IMG/VR virus record: IMGVR_UViG_3300009146_000017
Span: 1-47,401 of that record
Source of the DNA: a virus
Direction: 5' to 3' (one strand)
DNA length: 47,401 bases
The translations under genes and the position numbers were made by a program. The notes under the pieces were generated by a model, which saw only the letters and a list, made by a program, of their open reading frames with translations, was not told the DNA's origin and did no database searches. Positions 1,234-11,205 of the stretch are shown here, piece after piece (position 1 is the first letter of the stretch; each line of letters begins with the position of its first letter).

Positions 1234-1532
1234 CGCAGGGGCGGCTCGATCTGGCCCGCCTCGACCACCTGATCCCACGCGCTCGGCTGCGCCCCGGCGC
1301 CCGCCTTCCACCAGTCCTCGGGCACCGCCGAGAGGTGCCAGTGGGGCGCCAGCGGCTCCCCGTCCGCCAGCAGCTGCAGCCGGGCGGTCAGCAGGGCCAT
1401 CGCGGCGCTGGGGGCCTCGATCGTCTCGAGCCACCAGCACCGTTGGCTCGTACTGCCCGGATCGGACAGCACCCGCACCTTGTAGCGCCCGGATCCGTCG
1501 TCGGCACTCGCCGTGTTCCTCGCCAGGGTCAT
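1230..1532 (-). CDS. Hypothetical protein, 100 aa
   Basis: I do not recognise this protein. It is acidic to neutral, with a core containing RYKVRVLSD, a double tryptophan (CWWLETIEAP) and a helical MALLTARLQLLADG segment, and no membrane segment. The ATG at 1532 was chosen over an in-frame upstream start because it carries the GAAAGGGAACGTGCGATG start motif shared with seven other sites in this block. Its stop overlaps the methyltransferase start by 4 bp, so the two are probably translationally coupled. Confidence 0.75.
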   Translation of the reverse strand: MTLARNTASADDGSGRYKVRVLSDPGSTSQRCWWLETIEAPSAAMALLTARLQLLADGEPLAPHWHLSAVPEDWWKAGAGAQPSAWDQVVEAGQIEPPLR

Positions 1533-1584
1533 CGCACGTTCCCTTTCGCCCAGGCCGGCCGTCGAGCGGCCTCCGGGCCTCAGG

Positions 1585-1603
1585 AGTATACCCACAAAGT
1601 GGG
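1585..1603 (-). promoter_or_regulatory. Possible promoter element with dyad
   Basis: Reading leftward, a good -10 hexamer TATACT (1590-1585) is preceded directly by the inverted repeat CCCACTTTGTGGG (1603-1591). No convincing -35 is seen at 16-18 bp. It lies between the strong terminator at 1630-1662 and the gene starting at 1532, where a new promoter for that gene and the methyltransferase would be expected. The dyad could be an operator. Confidence 0.35.
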
Positions 1604-1629
1604 TGGCGGATCCGGCCGATGACAGACAC

Positions 1630-1662
1630 AAAAAAGGGGGGGGCGACAGCTGTCGCCCCCCC
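1630..1662 (-). terminator. Rho-independent terminator
   Basis: A perfect 26-bp palindrome at 1637-1662 (arms GGGGGGGCGACAG and CTGTCGCCCCCCC) is followed on the minus strand by six T residues. It sits 20 bp downstream of the stop of the gene at 1682-2095 and fits a canonical intrinsic terminator for leftward transcription. Confidence 0.85.
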
Positions 1663-1681
1663 TCGGTTGTGCTTTTATGCG

Positions 1682-2095
1682 TTATCGAAACCGCTCGGGC
1701 TCATACTCCGGGCCGAGGCGGACGAGGAGGGCCGTCGCCTGATCGAGCGCCCCCCTGGCGTCGGCGCGGTCGCCGGAGTGCATCCCGTCCGCGAGCCGGC
1801 GCAGCGCGGCGTACAGTTCTCGGGCGTCGCTGCGGACGCCCCCCGCGTCCGTCGCCGCCGCCGCGTCCGGCCCCCGCTCGTCCAGCAGGAACAGCGGCCA
1901 GACCTGATTGAGCCCGCCGGAGTGGACGCAGCGCAGCTTGCCGGCGCGCTCCAGCCGGTACAGCTCGTCCTTGACGGACTGCCACGACGCGGCCCCGAGC
2001 AGGTCGGCCACCTCCTCGAAGCGCAGGTAGGGCTTCGGGCCGTTCTCCCACCGGGGCCAGCGGCGCCGCAGCGCGGCGAGTATGTCGTCGTCCAC
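1682..2095 (-). CDS. Putative winged-helix-like protein, 137 aa
   Basis: The function is unknown. Residues about 15-60 (PYLRFEEVADLL, then SVKDELYRLERAGKLRCV) look like a small winged-helix DNA-binding fold: a helix, a partner helix ending in the classic LERAGKL turn, and a wing-like HSGGLNQVWPLFLL. The C-terminal half is helical. The GTG at 2095 is preferred to an upstream ATG because of the well-spaced GAGG and because its leader (2092-2113) matches the leader of the gene at 2225-2410 in 19 of 22 positions. A terminator follows the gene directly, so it ends a transcription unit. Confidence 0.65.
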   Translation of the reverse strand: MDDDILAALRRRWPRWENGPKPYLRFEEVADLLGAASWQSVKDELYRLERAGKLRCVHSGGLNQVWPLFLLDERGPDAAAATDAGGVRSDARELYAALRRLADGMHSGDRADARGALDQATALLVRLGPEYEPERFR

Positions 2096-2224
2096 CTGGA
2101 ACCTCGTTTCTTGAACCCTAGTGCGAGTTACTTTTCGTGAGGGCCAGGGCGTCAGGGCGCACTCCCCCACTCCCATCTCCGCACCCGGCGGGCCAATCCT
2201 CTACACCCCGCAGCGCGAATAGGG

Positions 2225-2410
2225 TCAGTCGGTCGCGTACAGCGCCCGCAGGAACGCCAGGGCGTCGGCCTGGAGCGGGTGCCCGTCCTTGCAGGCGACC
2301 CGGCTCACCCGCTCGATCTCGTCTGCGGTGATGCCCATCAGGAAGGCGGTCGGCGCCTCCGGCCCGTCCTTCCACTCCCGCAACAGCGCCGCCGCCGTCC
2401 TCTCGGCCAC
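2225..2410 (-). CDS. Hypothetical small protein, 61 aa
   Basis: Not recognised. It is a small, mostly helical protein (VAERTAAALLREWKDG at the start, ADALAFLRALYATD at the end) with one cysteine and no membrane segment. The GTG at 2410 is chosen because it shares the leader CAAGAAAYGRGGTTYCAGG with the next gene in the unit; an in-frame ATG four codons upstream is the alternative. A 129-bp gap before the following gene holds no obvious feature apart from that repeated leader. Confidence 0.6.
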   Translation of the reverse strand: MAERTAAALLREWKDGPEAPTAFLMGITADEIERVSRVACKDGHPLQADALAFLRALYATD

Positions 2411-2442
2411 CTGAAACCCCATTTCTTGCGCGCTAAGTGCCG

Positions 2443-2856
2443 CTAACGCTCGTCGTCGACGGCGATGCCCATCGCAGCCAACGCATCTTCCACGTCGAGG
2501 CGGAACAGCAGCGCCGCCCGGTCGGGCATCGGCACCAGCTCCTCGGCGGGCGGCTGGGGGGCGTTGGGGCTGTGGGCCAGGACGTCCAGGGCCAGCCGGT
2601 AGTCGGTCACCCGGCGGTGGGCGGCGCACTCGTCCTCGACGTACTCGCTCAGGGTCATGCCCCGCACGGCCCCGTCGCGCAGGTCGGTCGCCACCCGGTC
2701 GGCGGTGGTCTGCACGTCGTGGGCGTAGGCGGCGGCGAGCAGGCGCCGGGCCACTTCCACCGCGCCCAGCTGCCAGACCTCGGGCCAGGATGCGTAGGCC
2801 CCCGCCAGGTCCGGCGGGGGCAGCTGCATCGGGTAGGGGGGCCGGGGGGCGGTCAC
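2443..2856 (-). CDS. Hypothetical protein, 137 aa
   Basis: Not recognised. After a proline-rich start it is helical (WPEVWQLGAVEVARRLLAAAYAHDV), with the acidic stretch TLSEYVEDECAAHRRVTDYR and a C-terminal LFRLDVEDALAAMGI. The GTG at 2856 overlaps the stop of the preceding small membrane protein gene (GTGA), which fixes the start better than the longer open frame. No membrane segment and no metal-binding cluster are present. Confidence 0.7.
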   Translation of the reverse strand: MTAPRPPYPMQLPPPDLAGAYASWPEVWQLGAVEVARRLLAAAYAHDVQTTADRVATDLRDGAVRGMTLSEYVEDECAAHRRVTDYRLALDVLAHSPNAPQPPAEELVPMPDRAALLFRLDVEDALAAMGIAVDDER

Positions 2857-3032
2857 TTCCAGGTCCCCGTATCGAAGGACTCGGCGTCCTCGCGGCGTTG
2901 CTGGGGGGTGCGGCGCGCGTCGCGCTCCAGGGCCGCACACAGGCTCCCCGACCACCACGCCGCCAGGGCGATCCCGCCCACCAGGAAGAGCAGCCCGAGC
3001 AGCATCTGCAGCAGGGCCTCGACTCCGGTCAT
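2853..3032 (-). CDS. Small single-pass membrane protein, 59 aa
   Basis: One hydrophobic helix at residues 5-26 (LLQMLLGLLFLVGGIALAAWW) is followed by a charged, arginine-rich tail, suggesting an inner-membrane protein with a cytoplasmic C-terminus. The ATG at 3032 carries the GAACGTGCGATG start motif and overlaps the stop of the previous membrane-protein gene (ATGA). Two adjacent small membrane proteins suggest a paired function, for example envelope modulation or superinfection exclusion, but nothing in the sequence decides this. Confidence 0.75.
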   Translation of the reverse strand: MTGVEALLQMLLGLLFLVGGIALAAWWSGSLCAALERDARRTPQQRREDAESFDTGTWK

Positions 3033-3244
3033 CGCACGTTCCTCTTTCGCTTCAGTGGTAGGGGGGCGGTCAGGTAGCGGGGCCAGTCGTGGCGGTAGGC
3101 GAGCCACTCGTAGAGCAGCCACAGCGGCACGGTGAGCCACCAGTACCACGCGGCCAGGGCCAGGGTCACGCCACCGGCGATCCCCAGCCCGGCCCACGCG
3201 ATGGGGCCGATGAAGGCCCCCGCCAGCACCAGGGCGACTCTCAC
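3029..3244 (-). CDS. Small two-helix membrane protein, 71 aa
   Basis: Two predicted membrane helices (about residues 3-32, and WYWWLTVPLWLLYEWLAY at 33-50) precede a basic C-terminus ending KRKRNVR. The GTG at 3244 overlaps the stop of the zinc-cluster protein gene (GTGA). The last codons, AAC GTG CGA TGA, are the start motif of the next gene read in another frame, so the two starts and stops are tightly linked. Confidence 0.72.
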   Translation of the reverse strand: MRVALVLAGAFIGPIAWAGLGIAGGVTLALAAWYWWLTVPLWLLYEWLAYRHDWPRYLTAPLPLKRKRNVR

Positions 3245-3873
3245 GCCTCGGCCTCGTTCCGGCACTCCGGGGTGCAGAACCCCTCGGGGGTCACCCGGGT
3301 GCCGCCCGCCAGGGGGGCGTGGCAGTACACGCAGCTGGTGCGCCCGGGGCCGACGACGCGCCCGGGGTCGAGGGCGTCGCTGATCTCCTGCATGGTGGCG
3401 ACGGCCTCGTCCCACTCGGCCTCGCCCTCGGGCACGATGTGCGACCAGAAGGTGTCCTCTGGCCCCTCCTGGATGTCCACCGCCGCCCAGTGGGCGAGAT
3501 CCCGCAGCAACCGCCACTGCTTCGGGGTGAGGGTGATCTTCACCTCCCCCCACCGCTGGACGGCGGCGGCGTCGGCCAGCCCGTGCTCGGCCACGTAGGC
3601 GCGCACGCTGCCCACCATGTCGTCGCCCGAGATGTCCCCTGACCCGCCGAACTGCTCCACGCCCTGGGCGTCGTCCATGCGGTATTCCCAGTCGCCCGTG
3701 CCGAAGTCGCGGAGCCACTGCGCCCACCCGTCGGCAAACGGCACGGCGACCGCGGCGTTCCCTTCCCAGTCCTGGAGCAGGCAGGGGATGCCCACCCGCT
3801 GCAGGGCCACCGCCATCGCTACGGCCCCCACGATCCGCTCCGGCTGCTCGTTCGTCCCGCTCGTCTCGGTCAT
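3241..3873 (-). CDS. Hypothetical protein with C-terminal zinc cluster, 210 aa
   Basis: Function unknown. The N-terminal half (VAMAVALQRVGIPCLLQDWEG onwards) and a middle helical part (LTPKQWRLLRDLAHWAAVDI) match nothing I know. The C-terminus has a four-cysteine cluster, CVYC followed by CTPEC about 19 residues later, which should bind zinc. The ATG at 3873 has the block's start motif and overlaps the stop of a 24-residue upstream reading frame (ATGA). It is followed by the two membrane protein genes, each overlapping by 4 bp. Confidence 0.75.
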   Translation of the reverse strand: MTETSGTNEQPERIVGAVAMAVALQRVGIPCLLQDWEGNAAVAVPFADGWAQWLRDFGTGDWEYRMDDAQGVEQFGGSGDISGDDMVGSVRAYVAEHGLADAAAVQRWGEVKITLTPKQWRLLRDLAHWAAVDIQEGPEDTFWSHIVPEGEAEWDEAVATMQEISDALDPGRVVGPGRTSCVYCHAPLAGGTRVTPEGFCTPECRNEAEA

Positions 3874-3944
3874 CGCACGTTCCCTCTCCCGGCAAAGCGC
3901 CGGCAATGCACGGCCTGGGCGTGCGGAGCTCGGCTCCGGCCCAT
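3870..3944 (-). CDS. Possible 24-aa leader peptide
   Basis: A short open frame, beginning MGRSRAPHAQ and ending GRGNVR, starts at an ATG preceded by a degenerate copy of the start motif (GAGGTGCGATG). It ends with a TGA that overlaps the next ATG (ATGA). It lies directly downstream of the structured RNA leader at 3965-4006. It may be a translated upstream frame that couples the leader to the gene at 3873, or simply a degraded duplicate of leader DNA. Confidence 0.35.
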   Translation of the reverse strand: MGRSRAPHAQAVHCRRFAGRGNVR

Positions 3945-4006
3945 CGCACCTCGGTTACCGTTTCGGCCCTTTTGGGCCATCATCGGGGGGGCCACACAGC
4001 CCCCGA
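3945..4006 (-). promoter_or_regulatory. Structured RNA leader, copy 3
   Basis: In minus-strand RNA sense, hairpin 1 is GGGGGC-UGUGUG-GCCCCC (4004-3987), followed by an 8-nt linker CCGAUGAU and hairpin 2, GGCCC-AAAA-GGGCC (3978-3965). A GAAA and a diverged start motif come next. The stems differ from the copies at 5365-5419 and 6286-6337, but the pairing, the hexaloop, the spacing and the following GAAA are kept. This is the pattern expected of a conserved cis-acting RNA. Confidence 0.7.
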
Positions 4007-4020
4007 CGGCGGGGCGCGGG

Positions 4021-4467
4021 TTACGCGCCCGGCTCGTCCTCCTCGTCCCCCGGATCGGACGGATCCTCCTTGTAGCGGTCGGACGGCGTCCAGACCCAGC
4101 TGCCCGCGCCAATCGGGTAGAGGCGGCGCGTCTGCCCATCGGCGCACAGCACATCCTCGCCGGGCCACACGTCCTCGTAGTCGGCCGGGTCCTCGCCCTC
4201 GGGGGCCTCTCCGATCTCCTCATTCCACATGACCACGGCGTCACGCGCCGGATCGTAGGCGGCGCGCCCCGTGGGGTAGTACTCCAGGTACTGAGCGCAC
4301 AGGGAGTCGGCGTTCTCCCGGTCGAACCAGGGGCGCAGGAACCCGTTCCAGTGCTCCCCTTCCACGTACCCGGTCAGCCCGGTGAACATATCGAAGATCT
4401 CGACCTCGCACGCCACCAGCCCCCACTCGGCCGCCCGCGCCGTCTCAGCGTTCTCCGCATTGGTCAT
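4021..4467 (-). CDS. Hypothetical acidic protein, 148 aa
   Basis: A strongly acidic protein of unknown function. Its core has aromatic-rich segments (GEHWNGFLRPWFDRENADSL, YLEYYP, AYDPARDAVVMWNEEIGE), and the C-terminus is almost all D, E, P and G. The overall charge recalls DNA-mimic or restriction-inhibitor proteins found in phage accessory regions, but no family match can be claimed. The ATG at 4467 carries the GAAAGGAACGTGCGATG start motif. Confidence 0.72.
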   Translation of the reverse strand: MTNAENAETARAAEWGLVACEVEIFDMFTGLTGYVEGEHWNGFLRPWFDRENADSLCAQYLEYYPTGRAAYDPARDAVVMWNEEIGEAPEGEDPADYEDVWPGEDVLCADGQTRRLYPIGAGSWVWTPSDRYKEDPSDPGDEEDEPGA

Positions 4468-4503
4468 CGCACGTTCCTTTCGCGCAGTGTTGGTTGGGGG
4501 GGA

Positions 4504-5364
4504 TTACTCCCCCCGGTAGAGCCGGTGCGCCGTCGCCAGCATGGCGTCAGCGGTCAGCCCGAACCCGTCTCCGATCAGGTGGGCATTGCGCCCGGTCTGC
4601 TCCAGGGTCCAATCCCAGCTGTCCGTCCCGCCGTCTGCCATGGTCAGCACGCGCCGTCCGGGCAGATCCACCAGGATGACCGTTCCGGCGTTGGTCAGCC
4701 GGATGGTGGCGGGGATCTCCAGCCGGTGGAAGAGGGCGTGCGTGCTATCGCGTGGCTCACCGGCCGCCGCCGGGTTGGCCTCCATCTCGGCCTGATCGAT
4801 CTGGTCCTGCGTCACGCCCCACTGATCGTGCGCGGGATCGGTCACGCACTGAAACTGGTAGTCCACGCCCGGCATGGTGACCTCCACCGCGCGCCCCTCG
4901 TCCCCGCACACGGCGCACTGCCGATGCCACGGCAGGACCTCGTCCTCGTCCTCCTCACGGGTCTCGCCCGGCGCCAGCGGCCGCACCTTCAGGCGCGGCG
5001 ACTGCCCGGGCAGGTTGTAGAAGGTCACCACCATCCCGGCCGCCTCCAGACGGGCCATCGCCTCCCGGAGCAGCTGCCACTGCTCGGCGCCCGGGATGGG
5101 CGGCTCGTTCCAGACGTATTCGACCTCGCCCCCCGGGCGCACCGTCTGCAGATCGAACAGGGGCCAATCCCGCAGCGGCCCGAGCAGATCCCAGATCGGC
5201 ATCCCGGTGTTGACGTTCCGCGTCGCTTCGCTCATCGCACGTTCCTCTCGGGTGATGTCGCGGCGCAGCCGCGTCGCTTCTTCGGCGTGGCCCGGGACGC
5301 GATCCCAGCCGCCCGCTTCCAGCTGCTGCAGGCGCGCCCGCATCCAGGACAGGGAGTCGGTCAT
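4504..5364 (-). CDS. Hypothetical zinc-cluster protein, 286 aa, with internal second start
   Basis: Unknown function. Residues 1-43 are a short helical region. A second copy of the start motif then gives an in-frame ATG at 5235, allowing a 243-residue form. The body contains a helical QWQLLREAMARLEAAGM segment, a Cys cluster CAVCG followed by CVTDPAHD near the middle, and a C-terminal beta-rich part (RLTNAGTVILVDLPGRRVLTM). The first start lies downstream of structured RNA leader copy 2. Either one gene makes two products, or two once-separate genes have fused after loss of a stop codon. Confidence 0.75.
   Translation of the reverse strand: MTDSLSWMRARLQQLEAGGWDRVPGHAEEATRLRRDITREERAMSEATRNVNTGMPIWDLLGPLRDWPLFDLQTVRPGGEVEYVWNEPPIPGAEQWQLLREAMARLEAAGMVVTFYNLPGQSPRLKVRPLAPGETREEDEDEVLPWHRQCAVCGDEGRAVEVTMPGVDYQFQCVTDPAHDQWGVTQDQIDQAEMEANPAAAGEPRDSTHALFHRLEIPATIRLTNAGTVILVDLPGRRVLTMADGGTDSWDWTLEQTGRNAHLIGDGFGLTADAMLATAHRLYRGE
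5233..5250 (-). promoter_or_regulatory. Internal copy of start motif
   Basis: GAGAGGAACGTGCGATG ends at an in-frame ATG (5235) 43 codons inside the gene at 4504-5364. It matches the motif in front of the other genes of this block, including the otherwise unconstrained spacer ACGTGCG, so it is probably an active second initiation site. Confidence 0.6.
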
Positions 5365-5419
5365 CGCACGTTCCCTTTCGGCGCTTTTGCGCCATCGTCA
5401 GAGGGGCCACACAGCCCCT
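5365..5419 (-). promoter_or_regulatory. Structured RNA leader, copy 2
   Basis: In minus-strand sense, hairpin 1 is AGGGGC-UGUGUG-GCCCCU (5419-5402), the linker is CUGACGAU, and hairpin 2 is GGCGC-AAAA-GCGCC (5393-5380). It runs straight into GAAAGGGAACGUGCGAUG, the start of the gene at 5364. Compared with copies 1 and 3, most stem pairs are changed with their partners while both loops and the spacing are retained. Confidence 0.75.
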
Positions 5420-5439
5420 GAGGGCGGGCGTACCGGCGG

Positions 5440-6285
5440 CTAATGCAGCCGGTACGTCACTGGAGTGGACTTGCCCCAGCACTGGCGGCAGTCAAGGCAG
5501 GCGCCCCCCTGGCTACTACTCGGGCAGTTGTACCCCTGCGCCGCCGCGCCCGTGCCAGCACTCAGACCCATGACCACGGGGGGCGCAACGTTGAGGTGCA
5601 GGGCAGACGGGCGAACGGCGACGTTGCCCAGCTGGTTCAGCGTCTGCAGGACCGGGAGCAGGCGACGCACCGCGCCCCCCTGATACGAGCGGGTAGGGAT
5701 CCAGAAGCGAACGTCCGGCAACTGCTCGCAGACGGCCTGCCACATGGCGGCGTACTGCGGACTGAACATATCGCCCGAGTCATGGACGCGAAAGAAGGGG
5801 ATGCGCCGCGAACGCGTTGGCGGCAGGGCGTAGTCCATGGGCGCCCCCGCTGCGACGGCGGCCGCGTGCTTCTGGGCGGCAACGGTGCGGGTAGCCCAGC
5901 GGATGGCGTCCACCATGACGGCTACCCACTCATCCTGCCCCTCTTTGGTCATGAGACAGCGCAGCGTCCAGTCGCGACGGGCGGTCTGCGCCTCCCTGAC
6001 GCTGCGGTACCCGTACGAGCCGCCTCGCTTGACCAGGGTATCGCTCTTATGGTGCTTCTTGACCGACTCCGGATTGGCATAGCACCCATCACAGATCGCC
6101 GCGTTGCCCAGGGCATCGGCACCACTGACCGCAAAGGGACACATCCCTTTGGCGTTGCCCAGCTGGACGTTCCCGGCCGGGAGGCTCCAGCTATAGCCCG
6201 GCATCTTGCGCGGTTTGGTCAACAGGGCTCGATTGGTTCCCGGTACGACCGGGATCCCTCTCTTGAACCACTCGCTACGATCCAT
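5440..6285 (-). CDS. Gp88-family protein, 281 aa
   Basis: This resembles the phage gene-product-88 family known from actinobacteriophages such as L5; its biochemical role is not established. Seen here are a cysteine set in the N-terminal third (Cys49 and CDGC at 65-68, after GNAKGMCPFAVSG), a conserved-looking FFRVHDSGDMFS segment in the middle, the strand PDVRFWIPTRSY, and a second C-terminal cluster (CPSSSQGG, then CLDCRQCWG) that could hold a metal or iron-sulfur centre. The ATG at 6285 follows structured RNA leader copy 1 and the start motif. It is the largest accessory protein of the block after the methyltransferase and the 4504-5364 protein. Confidence 0.7.
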   Translation of the reverse strand: MDRSEWFKRGIPVVPGTNRALLTKPRKMPGYSWSLPAGNVQLGNAKGMCPFAVSGADALGNAAICDGCYANPESVKKHHKSDTLVKRGGSYGYRSVREAQTARRDWTLRCLMTKEGQDEWVAVMVDAIRWATRTVAAQKHAAAVAAGAPMDYALPPTRSRRIPFFRVHDSGDMFSPQYAAMWQAVCEQLPDVRFWIPTRSYQGGAVRRLLPVLQTLNQLGNVAVRPSALHLNVAPPVVMGLSAGTGAAAQGYNCPSSSQGGACLDCRQCWGKSTPVTYRLH

Positions 6286-6337
6286 CGCACGTTCCCTTTC
6301 GCCGTTTCCGGCTCATCAGTGACGGCACACACCGTCA
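6286..6337 (-). promoter_or_regulatory. Structured RNA leader, copy 1
   Basis: In minus-strand sense, hairpin 1 is UGACGG-UGUGUG-CCGUCA (6337-6320), the linker is CUGAUGA, and hairpin 2 is GCCG-GAAA-CGGC (6312-6301), followed directly by GAAAGGGAACGUGCGAUG of the Gp88-family gene. Its stems share little sequence with copies 2 and 3, yet form the same two hairpins with the same hexaloop. Confidence 0.75.
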
Positions 6338-6347
6338 GAGGGGCGCG

Positions 6348-6554
6348 TTACCCGGAGTAGGATCCGGTGTCCAGGTAACGCTGGCGCTTCCACTCGGCAT
6401 CCCACATCCGCGGCCCCTCCCCGGGCTGACGGGGGAACAGCCGGTTCCACTGCGCCGCCGTCCGGTTCGGGTGCAACACCTGGCAGTAGCGGCAGTACCG
6501 GCCTCGCGTGCCTCGCCCGGGATGCGCCGCGCCACAGTTCCAGCATTCACTCAT
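6348..6554 (-). CDS. Small zinc-ribbon protein, 68 aa
   Basis: The N-terminus holds two cysteine pairs, CWNC (residues 4-7) and CRYC (21-24), forming a zinc ribbon; the rest is helical and tryptophan-rich (AAQWNRLFP, MWDAEWKRQRYLD). HNH-like histidines are not present, so a nuclease role is not supported. It is the first gene of the leftward block, 32 nt downstream of the predicted transcription start at about 6586, and carries the start motif GGAAGGAACGTGCGATG. Confidence 0.8.
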   Translation of the reverse strand: MSECWNCGAAHPGRGTRGRYCRYCQVLHPNRTAAQWNRLFPRQPGEGPRMWDAEWKRQRYLDTGSYSG

Positions 6555-6592
6555 CGCACGTTCCTTCCGCGTGTGTTCCGCCCTGCACCCCG

Positions 6593-6621
6593 ACTATAGC
6601 GGGTGCTTAGTGCGACCGCAA
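6593..6621 (-). promoter_or_regulatory. Sigma-70-type promoter for the leftward accessory block
   Basis: On the minus strand, TTGCGG (6621-6616), a 17-bp spacer and TATAGT (6598-6593) form a good promoter reading into the zinc-ribbon gene at 6554. The sequence AGTGCGACCG (6609-6618), found at three other regulatory places in the genome, overlaps the -35 and spacer, so this promoter is probably controlled by the same DNA-binding protein. Confidence 0.7.
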
Positions 6622-7390
6622 GAGTGATACTGAAAAAGCAGGAGACAAAACCGCATCTCAACCGGCGGGAAGGGGCTACCAGGAGGGAGCTGTCAGCCGG
6701 CGCCAAGTGTCACCAGGCGACAGTTCCCGGAGGCGATGAGATCTCGGTAGCCAGCGCCGGATCGCTCCCCCAGCTGGGCAACGGCGACCGGTAGCGGGGT
6801 GAGCTGGTGACCGATGCTGGAGATGGTGCGAGGTGCGACCGGTCACCGGTCACCGTCCTACACCGGTCAGACGGCGATGCCCCTGGGCTGTTTGCGGTCT
6901 TCAGTCCCCTTCTGCAGCCCCTGAGGCGCCCCGAGGCCCCCGGAAGCGATGCAAAGGGTATGCAGGGGGCCTCCGAAGGGGTAATAACGGCCTTCCGGGG
7001 GTACCTTCCCTGGTGATCATGAAAGCTTATGGTGCATAAGTCGCATGAAACGGGTTTCCATGTCCCCCGACGCGCCGGACTCGGCCCCCAGGTACAGCGC
7101 CCAGGCAACGCGTGTAACGGGGAGCTCGAGGGGGGTGGGGGGTGGCCGGCGCAGTCTCCCCCCGCAAGAACGTATGCACCCCACAAGACAGGTCCCTTCC
7201 CGTTTTGCGGTGCTATCCTGTCTCCCGCGTCCGACCGGGGTCGCGAAACCCGGGCCGGGCGAAGTCCTCGCGGCGAGGCCGTGAGGGGGTGACAGGTGGG
7301 CTCATGACCCACCGGCTGTGGGGTTGCTGCCCACGACCCTCCCCCGTCGGCATATGGCGCCCACGGCCCAAGCGAGGGCGTGCGGTTCCT
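6622..7390. other. Gene-free divergent region
   Basis: No open frame here has convincing codon use. It holds another GTGCGACCG site (6833-6841) followed by tandem ACCGGTC/ACCGGTCACCG units (6838-6872) and the long-range inverted arms CCCCCGGAAG and CTTCCGGGGG (about 6935-7004). It also has a G-run tract around 7118-7145 that could form a quadruplex, and AGACAGG (7186-7192) paired with CCTGTCT (7217-7223) around GCGGTGCTATCCTG. The last sequence resembles the promoter at 7513-7525. It may contain control sites, a packaging site or an origin; nothing decides among these. Confidence 0.5.
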
Positions 7391-7516
7391 GAGTTCTGCG
7401 GTGGTTGTGTGGACCTTGTGCGGTCCGCGCCGCACAGTGCGAGGGGCAGTTCGCAGCTCTGGGGCTGGTGGCGGGCTGGCGGGGATCTGCTGGTTGTGCG
7501 GACCGAGTTCTGCGGT
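7391..7516. repeat. Swapped pair of 12-bp repeats before the late promoter
   Basis: GAGTTCTGCGGT occurs at 7391-7402 and 7505-7516. GTTGTGTGGACC at 7404-7415 has an 11/12 match at 7493-7504, in the reverse order relative to the first unit. Between them lies the dyad GTGCGG-TCCGCG-CCGCAC (7418-7435). The second pair overlaps the -35 and spacer of the promoter at 7494-7521, so these look like binding sites for a regulator of the rightward operon. Confidence 0.55.
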
Positions 7517-7521
7517 ACTAT
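7494..7521 (+). promoter_or_regulatory. Promoter of the rightward operon, probably leaderless
   Basis: TTGTGC (7494-7499), a 16-bp spacer and TACTAT (7516-7521) are followed after only six bases by the ATG at 7528. Transcription should begin at or next to the start codon, giving a leaderless mRNA. The same geometry recurs at 23906-23942. Confidence 0.6.
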
Positions 7522-7527
7522 CCTGCT

Positions 7528-7845
7528 ATGAGCTTCGGGGGGCGGCCGCGGCGGTTCAGCGCGGCCCAGGTGGCGCGGGCCTTGCGGGTGAGCAACGGCA
7601 TCATCGAGCACGCCGCCCAGGTGCTGGGCTGCCACCGGGACACGGTCTGGCGGTACTGCGTACGGCACCCCAGCCTGCGGCGCCTGCAGCTGGCGTTGGT
7701 CGCGAAAGAGAAAGGGTTGGAGCGTGCGCCTGGGGGAAGTGGTGACGGTGGGGCTGATGGTGGTGTACGTGCTCCTGAAGTGGTGGCAGATGTCCCCCGG
7801 GGGCCGGTGAAGCGCACCGTGCGGCTGGGCTACGAACGCTGGTGA
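7528..7845 (+). CDS. Terminase-small-subunit-like HTH protein, 105 aa
   Basis: Residues 7-52 (RRFSAAQVARALRVSNGII to YCVRHPSLRRLQ) match the N-terminal helix-turn-helix of the small terminase at 8828-9481. They share the pattern F-x-x-AQV-x-x-AL, S-x-G, a leucine-capped second helix, DTV-x-x-Y and PSLR. The C-terminal half is low-complexity and ends in TVRLGYERW. It therefore looks like a stand-alone DNA-binding paralogue, perhaps a regulator or packaging accessory. The ATG at 7528 is six bases after a -10 box, which argues against the longer open frame upstream. A small membrane-type frame overlaps its 3' half. Confidence 0.65.
   Translation: MSFGGRPRRFSAAQVARALRVSNGIIEHAAQVLGCHRDTVWRYCVRHPSLRRLQLALVAKEKGLERAPGGSGDGGADGGVRAPEVVADVPRGPVKRTVRLGYERW
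7724..7810 (+). CDS. Possible 28-aa membrane peptide, overlapping frame
   Basis: A GTG-started frame encodes a short peptide beginning MRLGEVVTVGLM, with one hydrophobic helix followed by KWWQ and a basic end. It lies inside the 3' part of the HTH gene in another frame, with AAAGGG about nine bases upstream. The hydrophobic pattern is natural and the third positions are G/C-rich, but so short a frame can arise by chance. Confidence 0.3.
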   Translation: MRLGEVVTVGLMVVYVLLKWWQMSPGGR

Positions 7846-7892
7846 GGCCACGTTGTAGCGAGATCCTTAGAAAGTGGAGGGGGTGAACTGCG

Positions 7893-8093
7893 GTGGCCGA
7901 CGAACAGCGAACCGCTGAGCTCGAGGAGCAGCTGCGGCTGGCCGAGGCGCAGTACGCCGCCGCCATGCGGGTCAACGAGCAGCGGCGTCAGGAGAACGAG
8001 GATCTGCGTCGGCTGCTGGTGGCCGTGCTGCCGCCCCACGCCGTCTACCAGGAGGCCCGGGACCTGATCAAGGGCCTGCGCGATGGCCGCTGA
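7893..8093 (+). CDS. Small coiled-coil protein, 66 aa
   Basis: Nearly the whole protein is a charged heptad-like helix (AELEEQLRLAEAQYAAAMRV, then RRQENEDLRRLL), ending in a short basic tail. Function unknown; such small helical proteins are common just before phage terminase genes. The GTG at 7893 follows GGAGGGGGTGA, the leader type used by several genes of the rightward operon. Its stop overlaps the next gene by 11 bp. Confidence 0.72.
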   Translation: MADEQRTAELEEQLRLAEAQYAAAMRVNEQRRQENEDLRRLLVAVLPPHAVYQEARDLIKGLRDGR

Positions 8094-8340
8094 ACTGATC
8101 AAGGAGGGCTGGACGGAGTACCGCCGGCGCACCCTTGCGCCCATCGGGGCCGGCGCCGTCCAGACCGAGGAGACCCGCAAAGCCTTCTACTTCGGCGCCA
8201 TCTGGCTGTTCCAGTCCATCATCGAGCGCATGAGTCCCGAGCACGAACCCACCGCGGCGGACCTCGCCATGATGGACGACCTGCAGGCCGAGAGTGACGC
8301 GTTCGTCGCCCAGCTGAAGCGAACGCCGCGCCGGGGGTGA
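8083..8340 (+). CDS. Conserved-type phage protein of unknown function, 85 aa
   Basis: The sequence AFYFGAIWLFQSIIERM followed by MSPEHEPTAADLAMMDDLQ is of a kind I recall in small phage proteins encoded next to terminases, but I know no function. It is helical with an amphipathic centre and no signal peptide. The ATG lies inside the end of the preceding gene, so translation is probably coupled. Confidence 0.72.
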   Translation: MAAELIKEGWTEYRRRTLAPIGAGAVQTEETRKAFYFGAIWLFQSIIERMSPEHEPTAADLAMMDDLQAESDAFVAQLKRTPRRG

Positions 8341-8343
8341 GCC

Positions 8344-8724
8344 GTGGCCGAGTGGGACATCTACGAGTCCGACGAGCCCACGCCGCTCGAGATCTGGACG
8401 CCCATGTACGGCGCCACCGCGGAGCAGCTGGCCGAGGCGTGCCAGCCCCAGGACGGAGACTCTCCCGGGATGCTGGCCCTCAAGCAGCGCTCCCACGACT
8501 ACGAGCGCCTGCTCGTCGATATCCGGGCGAAGGCGAACGCCCGCATCACCGAGCTCGAGGCCGAGAACGCCCGGCTGCGCCAGCGCCTGGAGTCCGTGGA
8601 GTCCGCAGCGGTCGAGTACGTCTGCCCCCACTGCGGCGCCGTCTCGCACAACCCCAACGACCTCCGCTTCCGGTACTGCGCCGCGTGCGGTCGCTTCGCT
8701 GAGGACGCGCCCGCATCGAGTTGA
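8344..8724 (+). CDS. Coiled-coil and zinc-ribbon protein, 126 aa
   Basis: An acidic N-terminus (WDIYESDEPTPLEIWTP) leads into a coiled coil (ARITELEAENARLRQRLESV). A C-terminal zinc ribbon with CPHCG and CAACG, about 20 residues apart, follows. Function unknown; a small DNA- or RNA-binding accessory of the packaging region is possible. The GTG at 8344 comes three bases after the previous stop, with GGGGGTGA overlapping that stop. Confidence 0.72.
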   Translation: MAEWDIYESDEPTPLEIWTPMYGATAEQLAEACQPQDGDSPGMLALKQRSHDYERLLVDIRAKANARITELEAENARLRQRLESVESAAVEYVCPHCGAVSHNPNDLRFRYCAACGRFAEDAPASS

Positions 8725-8744
8725 CATAACGAGTCTGCTAGACT
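8721..8744 (+). promoter_or_regulatory. Possible promoter before small terminase
   Basis: A consensus TTGACA (8721-8726) is followed by the -10-like TAGACT at 8739-8744, but the 12-bp spacer is too short for a standard sigma-70 promoter; at 17 bp the hexamer is only TGACCC. It lies right after the zinc-ribbon gene in a locally AT-richer stretch, so some control function is likely. Confidence 0.35.
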
Positions 8745-8782
8745 GACCCCGCCACCCCGGCGCCCCACGCGCCAGGGAGGTA

Positions 8783-8806
8783 GGAGCGCCGAAGGATCGG
8801 CGCTCC
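8783..8806. repeat. Dispersed palindrome, copy 3 (long form)
   Basis: GGAGCGCCGA-AGGA-TCGGCGCTCC is a perfect 10-bp stem with a 4-base loop, just before the TerS gene. It contains the core CGATCCTTCGG (on the minus strand) shared with the copies at 267-285 and 16239-16258, while its outer stem differs from theirs. Confidence 0.65.
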
Positions 8807-8827
8807 AGGGGAGCGGACGGCCTGGTC

Positions 8828-9481
8828 ATGACAGGCGCTCGCGGCGGTTCCGGCAACGGCACGCCTACGTCCTCCGCTCCGGAGTCGGCCGCCGGAGACG
8901 GCGCTGCGCCTCCGGCGGACCGGCCACGCCCTCCCCCCACGCCGCGCTCGCGCCGCACCCAGGAGGCCGCCCTCGAGAGCGCCGCCGCCCTGGCCGCGGA
9001 CGGGGTGGTCAGCCTCGCCACCGCCCGGCGCGCCTTCCAGCTGACCCGCGGCCCCCGCAAGTTCACCGTCGCCCAGGTGAAGGCCGCCCTGACGAAGTCC
9101 TGCGGGCTGGTCTACCTCACCGCGAAGGTGCTCAAGACCAACGCGGACACCGTCAACGGCTACCTCAACAAGTACCCCTCCCTGCGCGCCTACCAGGAGC
9201 AGTGCGCCGGGCTGGTCAACGACGAGGCCGAGCTCGCCCTCTTCAAGCAGGCCCGCCGGGGCGCCCCCTGGGCGGTCATGTACCTGCTCAAGCACAAGGC
9301 CCGCGAGCGGGGCTACGCCGACCGCACCGAGCACCTCTCCGAGCAGAAGGTCACCGTCGACGTGACCTACGCCCCAGACGCCCTGCAGGCCCAGGCCCCG
9401 CCGCAGGCCCGCATCGCCGAGCCCCTGCCCCCGCCCCCGGTGGACGTGGTCGAGGCGGACGCCGTGGTGTTCCCCGAATGA
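8828..9481 (+). CDS. terS: Terminase small subunit, 217 aa
   Basis: This is the DNA-recognition subunit of the packaging motor, called from its position directly before TerL (ATGA overlap) and its HTH domain. The first 75 residues are disordered and rich in G, S, P and A. The HTH follows (FTVAQVKAALTKSCGLVYLT, then NADTVNGYLNKYPSLR), then a helical oligomerisation region (DEAELALFKQARRGAPWAVM) and a proline-rich tail. The phrase WAVMYLLKHKARERGYADR is typical of small terminases. A stand-alone paralogue of its HTH is encoded at 7528-7845. Confidence 0.82.
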   Translation: MTGARGGSGNGTPTSSAPESAAGDGAAPPADRPRPPPTPRSRRTQEAALESAAALAADGVVSLATARRAFQLTRGPRKFTVAQVKAALTKSCGLVYLTAKVLKTNADTVNGYLNKYPSLRAYQEQCAGLVNDEAELALFKQARRGAPWAVMYLLKHKARERGYADRTEHLSEQKVTVDVTYAPDALQAQAPPQARIAEPLPPPPVDVVEADAVVFPE

Positions 9482-10791
9482 GTGCGACCACCGCGTCGGG
9501 TGCGGCACGGCCCCGCGTCGTGCTGCCCGCCTACCACCCCGGCCAGGTCACGGCGGCCGCCAGTCCAGCGCGATTCAACGTGCTCGCCTGCGGCCGCCGG
9601 TTCGGCAAGACCACCCTCGCCATCCGCAAGTGCGCCGAGACGGCCATCGCCGGCGGCCCCGCGGCGTGGGGCGGCCCCACCTACAAGAGCGTCGGCGAGA
9701 CGTGGCGCCTCTTCTCCGACCTGCTGCGCCCGGTGACGAAGCGCCGCTCGGAGCAGGAGAAGCGCCTGGAGCTGATCACGGGCGGGATCCTCGACGTCTG
9801 GTCCCTGGAGGAGCCGGACGTCGTGCGCGGGCGCGGGTACAAGCGCTTCGTCGTGGACGAGGCCGCGGCCATCCCCCGCCTGCAGTACGCCTGGGAGCAG
9901 GTCATCCGGCCCACCCTGACCGACCACCTGGGGGACTGTCTGTTCCTCTCGACGCCGAAAGGCCGCAACTTCTTCTGGGAGCTCTACCGTCAGGGCACCG
10001 ACCCGGACGACGCCGAGTGGGCCTCCTGGCGCTTCCCCTCCCTGGCGAACCCCTACCTGCCCGCGGGCGAGATCGAGGCCGCCCGGCGCTCCCTGCCCGC
10101 CCGGGTCTTCGCCCAGGAGTACGAGGCGGATTTCGTGAGCGAGGACGTCGGCGTCTTCCGGCGGGTGGAGGAGGCGGCCCGCGCCCCCGGGGCCACCCCC
10201 CAGGAGCACGCCCTGGCCGGGCACGTCTACGTCGCCGGGCTGGACTTCGGGCGCTACGCCGACTTCACCGTCTGCACGGTCATCGACGTGTCCCTCTCGC
10301 CCCCCGAGCTGGTCGCCATGGACCGCTTCAACCAGACCGACTGGCAGACCCAGTGGACCCGCCTGCAGGCGCTCTGCGGGCGCTTCCGGCCGTCGTACAT
10401 CCTCGCCGAGCGCAACGCCGCCGGGGAGCCGGTGCTGGCCGTGCTGCGGATGCTGGGGCTCCCCGTCGTGGACTTCATCACCAGCAACCCCAGCAAGGCC
10501 ACCGCCGTGCAGGCCCTCGCCCTGGCCTTCGAGCAGGACCAGCTGCGGATCCTGAACGACCCGATCCTGGTCGGCGAGCTGCAGGCGTTCGAGGCCGAGC
10601 GCCTGCCCACCAGCGGGATGATCCGGTACGCCGCCCCGGAGGGGAAGCACGACGACTGCGTCATCTCGCTCTGCCTCGGCTGGCTGGCCGCCACCCAGCA
10701 CCTGACCCGCCAGACGCGCACGGCCCTGTCCTTCGGGCCCACCCGGCGCACCCCCGGCGAGCCCACCCTCGAGGGCGCCCGGGCGAACTGA
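9478..10791 (+). CDS. terL: Terminase large subunit, 437 aa
   Basis: The packaging ATPase and nuclease that drives DNA into the prohead. Walker A is CGRRFGKTT (about residues 38-46), Walker B is FVVDEAA (124-130), and the coupling motif is FLSTPKG (about 156). The RNase H-like nuclease shows acidic positions at GLDFGRY (about 254), ILAERNA (about 307) and KHDDCVIS (about 389). Length and motif order are normal for the family. The start overlaps the TerS stop, confirming the pair. Confidence 0.96.
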   Translation: MSATTASGAARPRVVLPAYHPGQVTAAASPARFNVLACGRRFGKTTLAIRKCAETAIAGGPAAWGGPTYKSVGETWRLFSDLLRPVTKRRSEQEKRLELITGGILDVWSLEEPDVVRGRGYKRFVVDEAAAIPRLQYAWEQVIRPTLTDHLGDCLFLSTPKGRNFFWELYRQGTDPDDAEWASWRFPSLANPYLPAGEIEAARRSLPARVFAQEYEADFVSEDVGVFRRVEEAARAPGATPQEHALAGHVYVAGLDFGRYADFTVCTVIDVSLSPPELVAMDRFNQTDWQTQWTRLQALCGRFRPSYILAERNAAGEPVLAVLRMLGLPVVDFITSNPSKATAVQALALAFEQDQLRILNDPILVGELQAFEAERLPTSGMIRYAAPEGKHDDCVISLCLGWLAATQHLTRQTRTALSFGPTRRTPGEPTLEGARAN

Positions 10792-10821
10792 CGAAAGCGA
10801 AGAGGGGGAGGGCGAGCGATC

Positions 10822-11205
10822 GTGGAGACCCAGGAGCGTTCCACCGGACGGCACCGCATCGTCTACCGGGCCCGCGAGGACCGCCGCCTGCAGCAGCTGG
10901 TCGGGGTCCTCGCCGAGCAGTTGACCCGGGTGGTCGAGCAGGGCGTGGAGGCGGTGTCCCCCAACCAGCGCGATCCCGACGGCCAGCGCCGCCGGGTCGC
11001 CGCCGAGCTCTCCGGCGCCCTCCTGTCGGAAGTGTTCCGGCTGCTGGCGATCGCCCTGGCCGCCCGCGTCCAGCAGCGCGTCCCCTTCGGCGCCAGCGGG
11101 GTGCTGCGCGCCGCCCAGGAGGCCACCCGGGGCGGCGTGCGGCGCCCGCCCCCGGTCATCGACCTGACCGACCGGCGCACCCCGACGGAGAAGCGCGGTG
11201 GCTGA
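10822..11205 (+). CDS. Hypothetical protein between terminase and portal, 127 aa
   Basis: A helical, arginine-rich protein without a recognised family (RLQQLVGVLAEQLTRVVEQG, LSGALLSEVFRLLAIALAAR). The second helix is amphipathic rather than a clear membrane span. The GTG at 10822 follows the purine-rich leader AGAGGGGGAGGGCGAGCG. Its stop overlaps the portal start. A virion or head-assembly accessory role is a guess from position only. Confidence 0.72.
   Translation: METQERSTGRHRIVYRAREDRRLQQLVGVLAEQLTRVVEQGVEAVSPNQRDPDGQRRRVAAELSGALLSEVFRLLAIALAARVQQRVPFGASGVLRAAQEATRGGVRRPPPVIDLTDRRTPTEKRGG

What the first reader, a model, noticed from the sequence alone, without database searches (positions are those of the whole stretch)
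3945..6337. Three covarying double-hairpin RNA leaders with an invariant UGUGUG loop
Minus-strand leaders at 6286-6337, 5365-5419 and 3945-4006 fold the same way. Hairpin 1 has a 6-bp stem and loop UGUGUG (stems UGACGG/CCGUCA, AGGGGC/GCCCCU, GGGGGC/GCCCCC). A 7-8 nt linker of type CYGAYGAU and hairpin 2 follow (GCCG-GAAA-CGGC, GGCGC-AAAA-GCGCC, GGCCC-AAAA-GGGCC), then GAAA and the start motif. Stem bases change in compensating pairs while loops, linker length and the downstream start are kept. I know of no described element with this form; it could be a phage RNA switch or a protein-binding translational operator.
Basis: partly seen in the sequence, partly recalled or inferred. Interest (0 to 1): 0.85.

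Follow-up and report, generated by a model that had tools for sequence, protein, structure and literature searches.

The report
Three hammerhead ribozymes in phage operon
The three "double hairpins" are type III hammerhead ribozymes, small self-cutting RNAs already known from other phages, placed just before three gene starts, where they probably cut one long phage message into separate ones.

Summary
The three structures are real, but they are not a new element. Covariance models built only from other viral contigs find exactly these three sites in the window (62-70 bits, E 1e-17 to 1e-19). My descriptor finds none as good in 20 Mb of random sequence of the same composition. Copy 1 is canonical. 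Copies 2 and 3 have an extra U after A9 and a 5-bp stem II, a coupled subtype seen in other viruses (p = 7e-12). Copy 3 also has U4C and may cleave slowly. All lie between genes, with the predicted cut 52-60 nt before the start codon. Among 97 related viral hammerheads the start codon lies a median 22 nt after stem III. Clusters of hammerheads cutting phage operons were described in 2011 (PMC3088659). Most likely they split a polycistronic transcript into single-gene mRNAs with a hairpin-capped 5'-OH end. Cleavage itself is inferred. A ribosome-site-release switch was tested by folding and not supported.

The parts
6294..6342 (-). Hammerhead copy 1 (type III, canonical core): stem III CCCU 6342-6339 / AGGG 6297-6294; C17 6338, predicted cut between 6338 and 6337; stem I UGACGG/CCGUCA with loop UGUGUG 6337-6320; CUGAUGA 6319-6313; stem II GCCG-GAAA-CGGC 6312-6301; GAA 6300-6298
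   Evidence: independent CM R1 62.2 bits, E 1.6e-18; Rfam RF00008 28.3 bits, below gathering
5373..5424 (-). Hammerhead copy 2 (type III, extra U after A9): stem III CCCU 5424-5421 / AGGG 5376-5373; C17 5420, predicted cut 5420|5419; stem I AGGGGC/GCCCCU loop UGUGUG 5419-5402; CUGACGA 5401-5395; extra U 5394; stem II GGCGC-AAAA-GCGCC 5393-5380; GAA 5379-5377
   Evidence: CM R2 63.0 bits, E 1.6e-17
3957..4010 (-). Hammerhead copy 3 (type III, U4C core change and extra U after A9): stem III GCCGU 4010-4006 / ACGGU 3961-3957; C17 4005, predicted cut 4005|4004; stem I GGGGGC/GCCCCC loop UGUGUG 4004-3987; CCGAUGA 3986-3980; extra U 3979; stem II GGCCC-AAAA-GGGCC 3978-3965; GAA 3964-3962
   Evidence: CM R2 69.8 bits, E 1.1e-19; Rfam RF00008 30.5 bits, below gathering
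6348..6554 (-). ORF, 68 aa with two CxxC pairs, first gene of the run; its stop codon (6350-6348) lies 5 nt before hammerhead 1
   Evidence: no Pfam or PHROG match
5440..6285 (-). ORF, 281 aa, Pfam GP88 (PF17338) / phrog_1392; starts 8 nt after hammerhead 1
   Evidence: E 3e-20; E 1.9e-16
4504..5364 (-). ORF, 286 aa, unknown; starts 8 nt after hammerhead 2; a second in-frame start with the same motif at 5235
4021..4467 (-). ORF, 148 aa, phrog_9945 (unknown function); no hammerhead before it; hammerhead 3 follows it
3873..3944 (-). 24-codon ORF directly after hammerhead 3, whose stop overlaps (ATGA) the next start at 3873
   Evidence: sequence
3241..3873 (-). ORF, 210 aa, unknown, downstream of the 24-codon ORF

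Best explanation
Three type III hammerhead ribozymes sit between genes of one leftward run of phage genes. After transcription each would fold and cut its own RNA 3' of the NUC triplet. This would divide a polycistronic transcript into shorter messages. Each downstream message would begin with a 5'-OH directly at the base of stem I, a blunt hairpin, followed by stem II and, 52-60 nt from the cut, the start codon. Shown here: identity with the hammerhead class by core, topology, covariation and independent models, and the intergenic, start-proximal placement, shared by about 97 related viral hammerheads. Inferred from the class: that they cleave. Inferred from anatomy: that cleavage sets mRNA 5' ends and so uncouples and stabilises single-gene messages (a 5'-terminal hairpin and a 5'-OH both hinder RNase E-type 5'-end-dependent decay, from general knowledge). 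Copy 1 is expected to be fast. Copy 2 has an extra U at position 10, a change reported to speed a viroid hammerhead. Copy 3 (U4C) is expected to be slower and may act as a partial processing site.
For: All core elements and the A15.1-U16.1 pair are present in copies 1 and 2, all but U4 in copy 3. 3 hits against 2 weaker ones in 20 Mb of random sequence. CMs built without the window: copy 1 62.2 bits with the no-bulge model, copies 2 and 3 63.0 and 69.8 bits with the bulge model, nothing else in the window. A DNA pattern that asks for no stems (loop, CUGAYGA, CGAAA) returned 123 sites in IMG/VR; 112 form all three stems with an NUH site. Covariation 0.88 against 0.22 shuffled and 1.07 against 0.31. 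Placement: 75% of 97 viral hammerheads have an ATG ORF 10-35 nt downstream against 9% of random positions; 13% lie inside a long stop-free frame against 76%. Published precedent: clustered prophage hammerheads cleave 2-kb polycistronic RNAs in vitro, and a triple set cleaves in E. coli; HHphage of HF1/HF2 lies 13 nt before a start codon with the mapped mRNA 5' end at its cut (PMC3088659). The extra nucleotide after A9 is natural in CChMVd, and A10 to U raised its rate 3-4 fold (PMC3705267). U4C lowers in vitro activity but supports viroid infectivity (PMC3088659).
Against: No cleavage data for these RNAs. Copy 3 breaks the U4 consensus; no other hammerhead among 134 viral descriptor hits has that change. 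Rfam scores are below gathering. Stem III is only 4-5 bp. Four of the 18 consensus hammerheads tested in 2011 were inactive in vitro (PMC3088659). No operon mapping or RNA-seq exists for this virus, and the shared transcript is assumed from gene order.
Confidence: 0.85

Rival explanations
1. The elements are regulatory leaders (riboswitch or protein-binding translational operator) that control each gene without cutting RNA.
For: Conserved structures directly before start codons; the ribosome-binding region lies in or beside the structure.
Against: The invariant positions across viruses (CUGANGA, GAAA, U16.1, H17) are exactly the catalytic core of a known ribozyme. The UGUGUG loop and NAAA loop are the usual place of the loop I-loop II contact of fast hammerheads (PMC6155905). 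Downstream genes are not of one kind: most of 84 match no family.
Confidence: 0.05
2. Cleavage is a translation switch: stem III (AGGG, the Shine-Dalgarno core of genes 2 and 3) hides the ribosome-binding site, which is freed when the 5' strand leaves after cutting.
For: The 3' strand of stem III overlaps the purine-rich part of the start motif in copies 1 and 2, and the full-length fold pairs the GUGCG before AUG.
Against: Predicted unpaired fraction of -16..-1 hardly changes on cutting (0.44 to 0.47, 0.37 to 0.35, 0.43 to 0.46). Pairing of the flank is no better than with random flanks from the same genome. In 93 viral relatives the start region is open before and after (0.66, 0.68). Copy 3 has its GAGG outside stem III.
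Confidence: 0.12
3. The copies are decayed or inactive hammerheads, kept as mRNA-stabilising hairpins or as passengers of shuffled gene cassettes.
For: Copy 3 has a U4C core change; copies 2 and 3 have an insertion after A9; short stem III. The repeated start motif (eight exact copies) suggests cassette duplication.
Against: All three stems are intact in every copy. Stem III in copy 3 has different but still pairing bases. The insertion is a coherent viral subtype tied to a 5-bp stem II (Fisher p = 7e-12), not random decay.
Confidence: 0.12
4. Paired ribozymes excise the gene between them as a circular or religated RNA.
For: Copies 1 and 2 bracket the GP88 gene; hammerheads flank circular RNAs in retrozymes and viroids.
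Against: Spliced or circular products were looked for and not found for prophage clusters (PMC3088659). Most viral contig pieces held here carry a single copy (66 of 79).
Confidence: 0.03

Closest known systems
Clustered hammerhead ribozymes of prophages (Agrobacterium tumefaciens, Azorhizobium caulinodans, Clostridium scindens), Perreault et al. 2011, PMC3088659
   Same: Several hammerheads around single genes of a phage gene block; proposed to cut polycistronic mRNA into single-gene messages
   Different: Different genes; here all three are type III with the UGUGUG loop, two with an extra U after A9; not a confirmed prophage; untested
HHphage of haloviruses HF1/HF2 (PMC3088659)
   Same: Hammerhead just before a start codon of a phage gene; mRNA 5' end maps to the cut
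   Different: HHphage has an insertion near C3 and a saline archaeal host; the copies here have a normal C3 region
Rfam RF00008 Hammerhead_3 (plant satellite RNAs and viroids, type III)
   Same: Same topology, core and cleavage site
   Different: The Rfam model fits plant agents; these score 28-30 bits against the 48.5 cut-off; the function is mRNA processing, not genome unit cutting
CChMVd plus-strand hammerhead (PMC3705267)
   Same: An unpaired extra nucleotide between A9 and stem II, as in copies 2 and 3
   Different: The viroid has A, here U; the viroid is a replicating circular RNA
Start-associated sequences (SAS/ESAS) of cluster K mycobacteriophages (PMC3203893)
   Same: A short motif repeated at many phage gene starts, some copies preceded by an inverted-repeat element
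   Different: ESAS is a 17-bp inverted repeat with no hammerhead core reported; the motif here is different

Membership tests
Type III hammerhead ribozyme | C3 U4 G5 A6 N7 G8 A9 strand | tested here: met
   CUGAUGA (copy 1), CUGACGA (copy 2)
Type III hammerhead ribozyme | U4 in copy 3 | tested here: not met
   CCGAUGA, a U4C change; I therefore call copy 3 a hammerhead variant of uncertain activity. U4C is known from a viroid with reduced in vitro activity (PMC3088659)
Type III hammerhead ribozyme | G12 A13 A14 strand followed by the A15.1-U16.1 pair | tested here: met
   GAA + A paired with U in all three copies
Type III hammerhead ribozyme | NUH cleavage triplet (U16.1 H17) directly before stem I | tested here: met
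   CUC, CUC and GUC
Type III hammerhead ribozyme | Three helices, I and II closed by loops, III open | tested here: met
   MFE folds of the full elements show all three helices; covariation in relatives
Type III hammerhead ribozyme | G10.1-C11.1 directly after A9 (no insertion) | tested here: inconclusive
   Met in copy 1. Copies 2 and 3 have one extra U before the G-C pair, as 21 of 97 viral relatives have one extra base; a natural extra base there is active in CChMVd
Type III hammerhead ribozyme | Loop I-loop II tertiary contact | not testable with these tools
   Loop I UGUGUG and loop II NAAA are conserved in the viral relatives, but the search pattern itself fixed loop I
Type III hammerhead ribozyme | Self-cleavage leaving 2',3'-cyclic phosphate and 5'-OH | not testable with these tools
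   Needs an in vitro transcription assay
Rfam RF00008 | Score at or above the gathering cut-off of 48.5 bits | tested here: not met
   30.5 and 28.3 bits, copy 2 not reported. A curation threshold, not a property of the ribozyme: other viral hammerheads also fall below it
Riboswitch or translational operator | Ligand or protein site, alternative structure hiding the ribosome-binding site | tested here: inconclusive
   No change in predicted start-region accessibility; no Rfam family reached its gathering score. A ligand or protein itself was not testable
SAS/ESAS of cluster K mycobacteriophages | 17-bp imperfect inverted repeat before a start-associated sequence | tested here: not met
   The structures here are a 6-bp and a 4-5-bp hairpin plus a third helix with a hammerhead core

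The most novel reading that the evidence does not exclude
A large, mostly unannotated class of phage type III hammerheads acts as a general 5'-end maker for single-gene phage mRNAs. It would have two structurally coupled subtypes (no insertion with a 4-bp stem II; an extra base after A9, nearly always U, with mostly a 5-bp stem II) and relatives enriched in Patescibacteria genomes. The window's virus would carry both subtypes in one operon to give graded processing.
Probability: 0.35. Interest if true: 0.62.

Novelty: new member of a known kind. Interest (0 to 1): 0.42.

Why it matters
The role of hammerheads in bacteria and phages is described as an open question (PMC6155905). This operon, with a canonical, a U10 and a U4C+U10 copy in one transcript, is a compact natural test of whether cleavage sets mRNA ends and expression levels. 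The survey shows that start-proximal placement is a regular property of a whole set of viral hammerheads, and that current Rfam thresholds hide them from annotation.

Tried and rejected
(1) Ribosome-site release on cleavage: rejected on folding. (2) Extension of stem III up to the start codon (seen in MFE folds): not better than random flanks from the same genome. (3) Type I or II hammerheads elsewhere in the window: none. (4) tRNA or another Rfam RNA: none at gathering. The sub-threshold HDV match at 6116-6194 (24.4 bits, E 1.7) lies inside a coding gene and looks like chance. (5) A loose loop pattern on IMG/VR was too unspecific to use. (6) Hammerheads in relatives of the GP88 gene: none in L123 or L124; L125 and L245 are the same contig, 99.97% identical to window 6220-13295, so they are no independent evidence. 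(7) DNA relatives of the operon in phage records: none. (8) A common function of downstream genes: most of 84 match no family; four match an ATPase family (phrog_1297), three match DUF2201, and one each an anti-restriction family and ArdC N-terminal domain.
Full report
OBSERVATION. What was missed is the third helix. Directly 5' of hairpin 1 stands CCCU-C (6342-6338), CCCU-C (5424-5420) or CCGU-C (4009-4005). Directly after the GAA that follows hairpin 2 stands AGGG, AGGG or ACGG. These pair, and they differ by compensating change between copies. With that helix the whole reads, 5' to 3': stem III, U16.1, C17, cut, stem I hairpin, CUGANGA, stem II hairpin, GAA, A15.1, stem III. This is the type III hammerhead ribozyme, base for base in copy 1. 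Rfam's Hammerhead_3 model finds copies 3 and 1 (30.5 bits, E 0.001; 28.3 bits, E 0.004), below its gathering score of 48.5, so the default scan of the window returns nothing.

CHANCE. A three-helix descriptor with the core, NUH and stems of at least 3 bp gives exactly three hits in the window, on the minus strand (scores 13, 14, 15). In 20 Mb of third-order Markov sequence trained on the window it gives two, scores 6 and 12. No type I or II arrangement was found.

RELATIVES. Of 123 sites in 119 contigs, 112 form all three stems and have an NUH site. After removing identical copies, 97 remain (this set also takes in a few further copies in the same contigs). They fall into two forms: no extra base, mostly with a 4-bp stem II (73 of 76), and one extra base (nearly always U) after A9 (21), mostly with a 5-bp stem II (15 of 21). 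The tie between insertion and stem length is strong (Fisher p = 7e-12). In 33 diverse members of the first form, 14 of 16 pairs show changes on both sides, with covariation score 0.88 against 0.22 shuffled. In 9 of the second form, 15 of 17 pairs do, 1.07 against 0.31. Caveat: these alignments were drawn from sequences that passed the descriptor, so the percentage paired is biased upward; the 112 of 123 figure is not.

INDEPENDENT MODELS. Covariance models built from those viral sequences alone, the window excluded, find the three sites and nothing else in the window. Copy 1 prefers the no-insertion model (62.2 bits, E 1.6e-18). Copies 2 and 3 prefer the insertion model (63.0 bits, E 1.6e-17; 69.8 bits, E 1.1e-19). 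E-values are rough because calibration was short.

CORE DEPARTURES. The extra U after A9 in copies 2 and 3 has a precedent: the plus hammerhead of chrysanthemum chlorotic mottle viroid has an extra A there, and changing it to U raised the trans-cleaving rate 3-4 fold (PMC3705267). U4C in copy 3 is rarer: none of 134 viral descriptor hits has it, though the IMG/VR search pattern required U at that position, so this absence holds fully only for the additional sites in the same contigs. It is known from a viroid, where it lowers in vitro activity but allows infection (PMC3088659). Copy 3 is therefore filed as a variant, probably slower.

CONTEXT. The window is an IMG/VR virus record of 47,401 bases with a terminase. 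The hammerheads stand in a leftward run of genes: a 68-aa ORF, hammerhead 1, a GP88-family gene (PF17338, E 3e-20), hammerhead 2, a 286-aa ORF, a 148-aa ORF, hammerhead 3, then a 24-codon ORF that overlaps the next start. The start codon follows the end of stem III by 8, 8 and 12 nt, and the predicted cut by 52, 55 and 60 nt. In the viral relatives the median is 22 nt after stem III (quartiles 19 and 26) and 68 nt after the cut. An ATG ORF begins 10-35 nt downstream in 75% against 9% of random positions, and only 13% lie in a long stop-free frame against 76% (the control counted frames on either strand). So cutting in the 5' leader, just before the start codon, is a regular property of this set and not a peculiarity of the window.

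MECHANISM. Shown: identity, placement, covariation. Inferred from the class: self-cleavage. Published: clustered prophage hammerheads cut 2-kb polycistronic RNA in vitro, and one triple set cuts in E. coli; HHphage of HF1/HF2 lies 13 nt before a start codon and the mRNA 5' end maps within three nucleotides of its cut (PMC3088659). Inferred here: each message gains a 5'-OH that begins exactly at the base of stem I, a hairpin without overhang, which by general knowledge hinders 5'-end-dependent decay. I expected that stem III hides the Shine-Dalgarno region until cleavage. Folding does not support this: predicted accessibility of -16..-1 is 0.44, 0.37 and 0.43 before and 0.47, 0.35 and 0.46 after, and the flank pairs no better than random flanks. 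Nearest-neighbour folding ignores the tertiary contact, so this is a weak negative.

COMPARISON. What it works like and what it is agree: type III hammerhead ribozymes in a phage operon, a kind described in 2011. New here are this instance, the mixed subtypes in one operon, the coupling of the inserted base to stem II length, and the finding that Rfam's threshold hides the group: none of 12 viral contigs gave a Hammerhead_3 hit at gathering; those measured score 39-47 bits. I could not find the insertion-stem II coupling in the papers read, but the library is open-access only.

SIDE RESULT. The same pattern on one genome per species gave 121 sites, 47 of them hammerheads, many in Patescibacteria. 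Model R1 at E <= 1e-8 hit 9 of 144 genomes of the phylum of G005 (a Saccharibacteria record; the centre genome excluded) and 0 of 149 of the phylum of G002 (a Henriciella record) (p = 0.0015). A 0.7-Mb Saccharibacteria genome (G006) has nine matches at E <= 0.001. No paper in the library holds both 'hammerhead ribozyme' and 'Patescibacteria'.

Noticed in passing
window 1530-6564, minus strand: GGAACGTGCGATG occurs exactly eight times, always on the minus strand with its ATG opening an ORF of 59-286 codons: a repeated start-associated sequence. Two of the three hammerheads are fused to it.
   Followed up: partly
L248, L251-L256, L267, L281-L291, L305, L312, L316, L320 and others (genome contigs): Type III hammerheads with the UGUGUG loop are enriched in Patescibacteria: 9 of 144 genomes against 0 of 149 in the phylum of a Henriciella genome; nine matches in one 0.7-Mb Saccharibacteria genome.
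   Followed up: partly
L126-L244 (viral contigs): Rfam 15 Hammerhead_3 gathering score (48.5) misses the phage hammerheads: none of 12 contigs at gathering; measured scores 39-47 bits.
   Followed up: yes
L126-L244: An extra base (nearly always U) after A9 goes with a 5-bp stem II, its absence with a 4-bp stem II, in 97 viral hammerheads (p = 7e-12).
   Followed up: partly
window 3873-3944, minus: A 24-codon ORF after hammerhead 3 whose stop overlaps the next start (ATGA); possible leader peptide or coupling device.
   Followed up: no
window 5235 and 5364, minus: Two in-frame starts with the same start motif in one ORF; two protein forms are possible.
   Followed up: no
L131:3733-3765: A DUF805b RNA (RF02914) match above gathering in a viral contig, about 500 nt after its hammerhead.
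   Followed up: no
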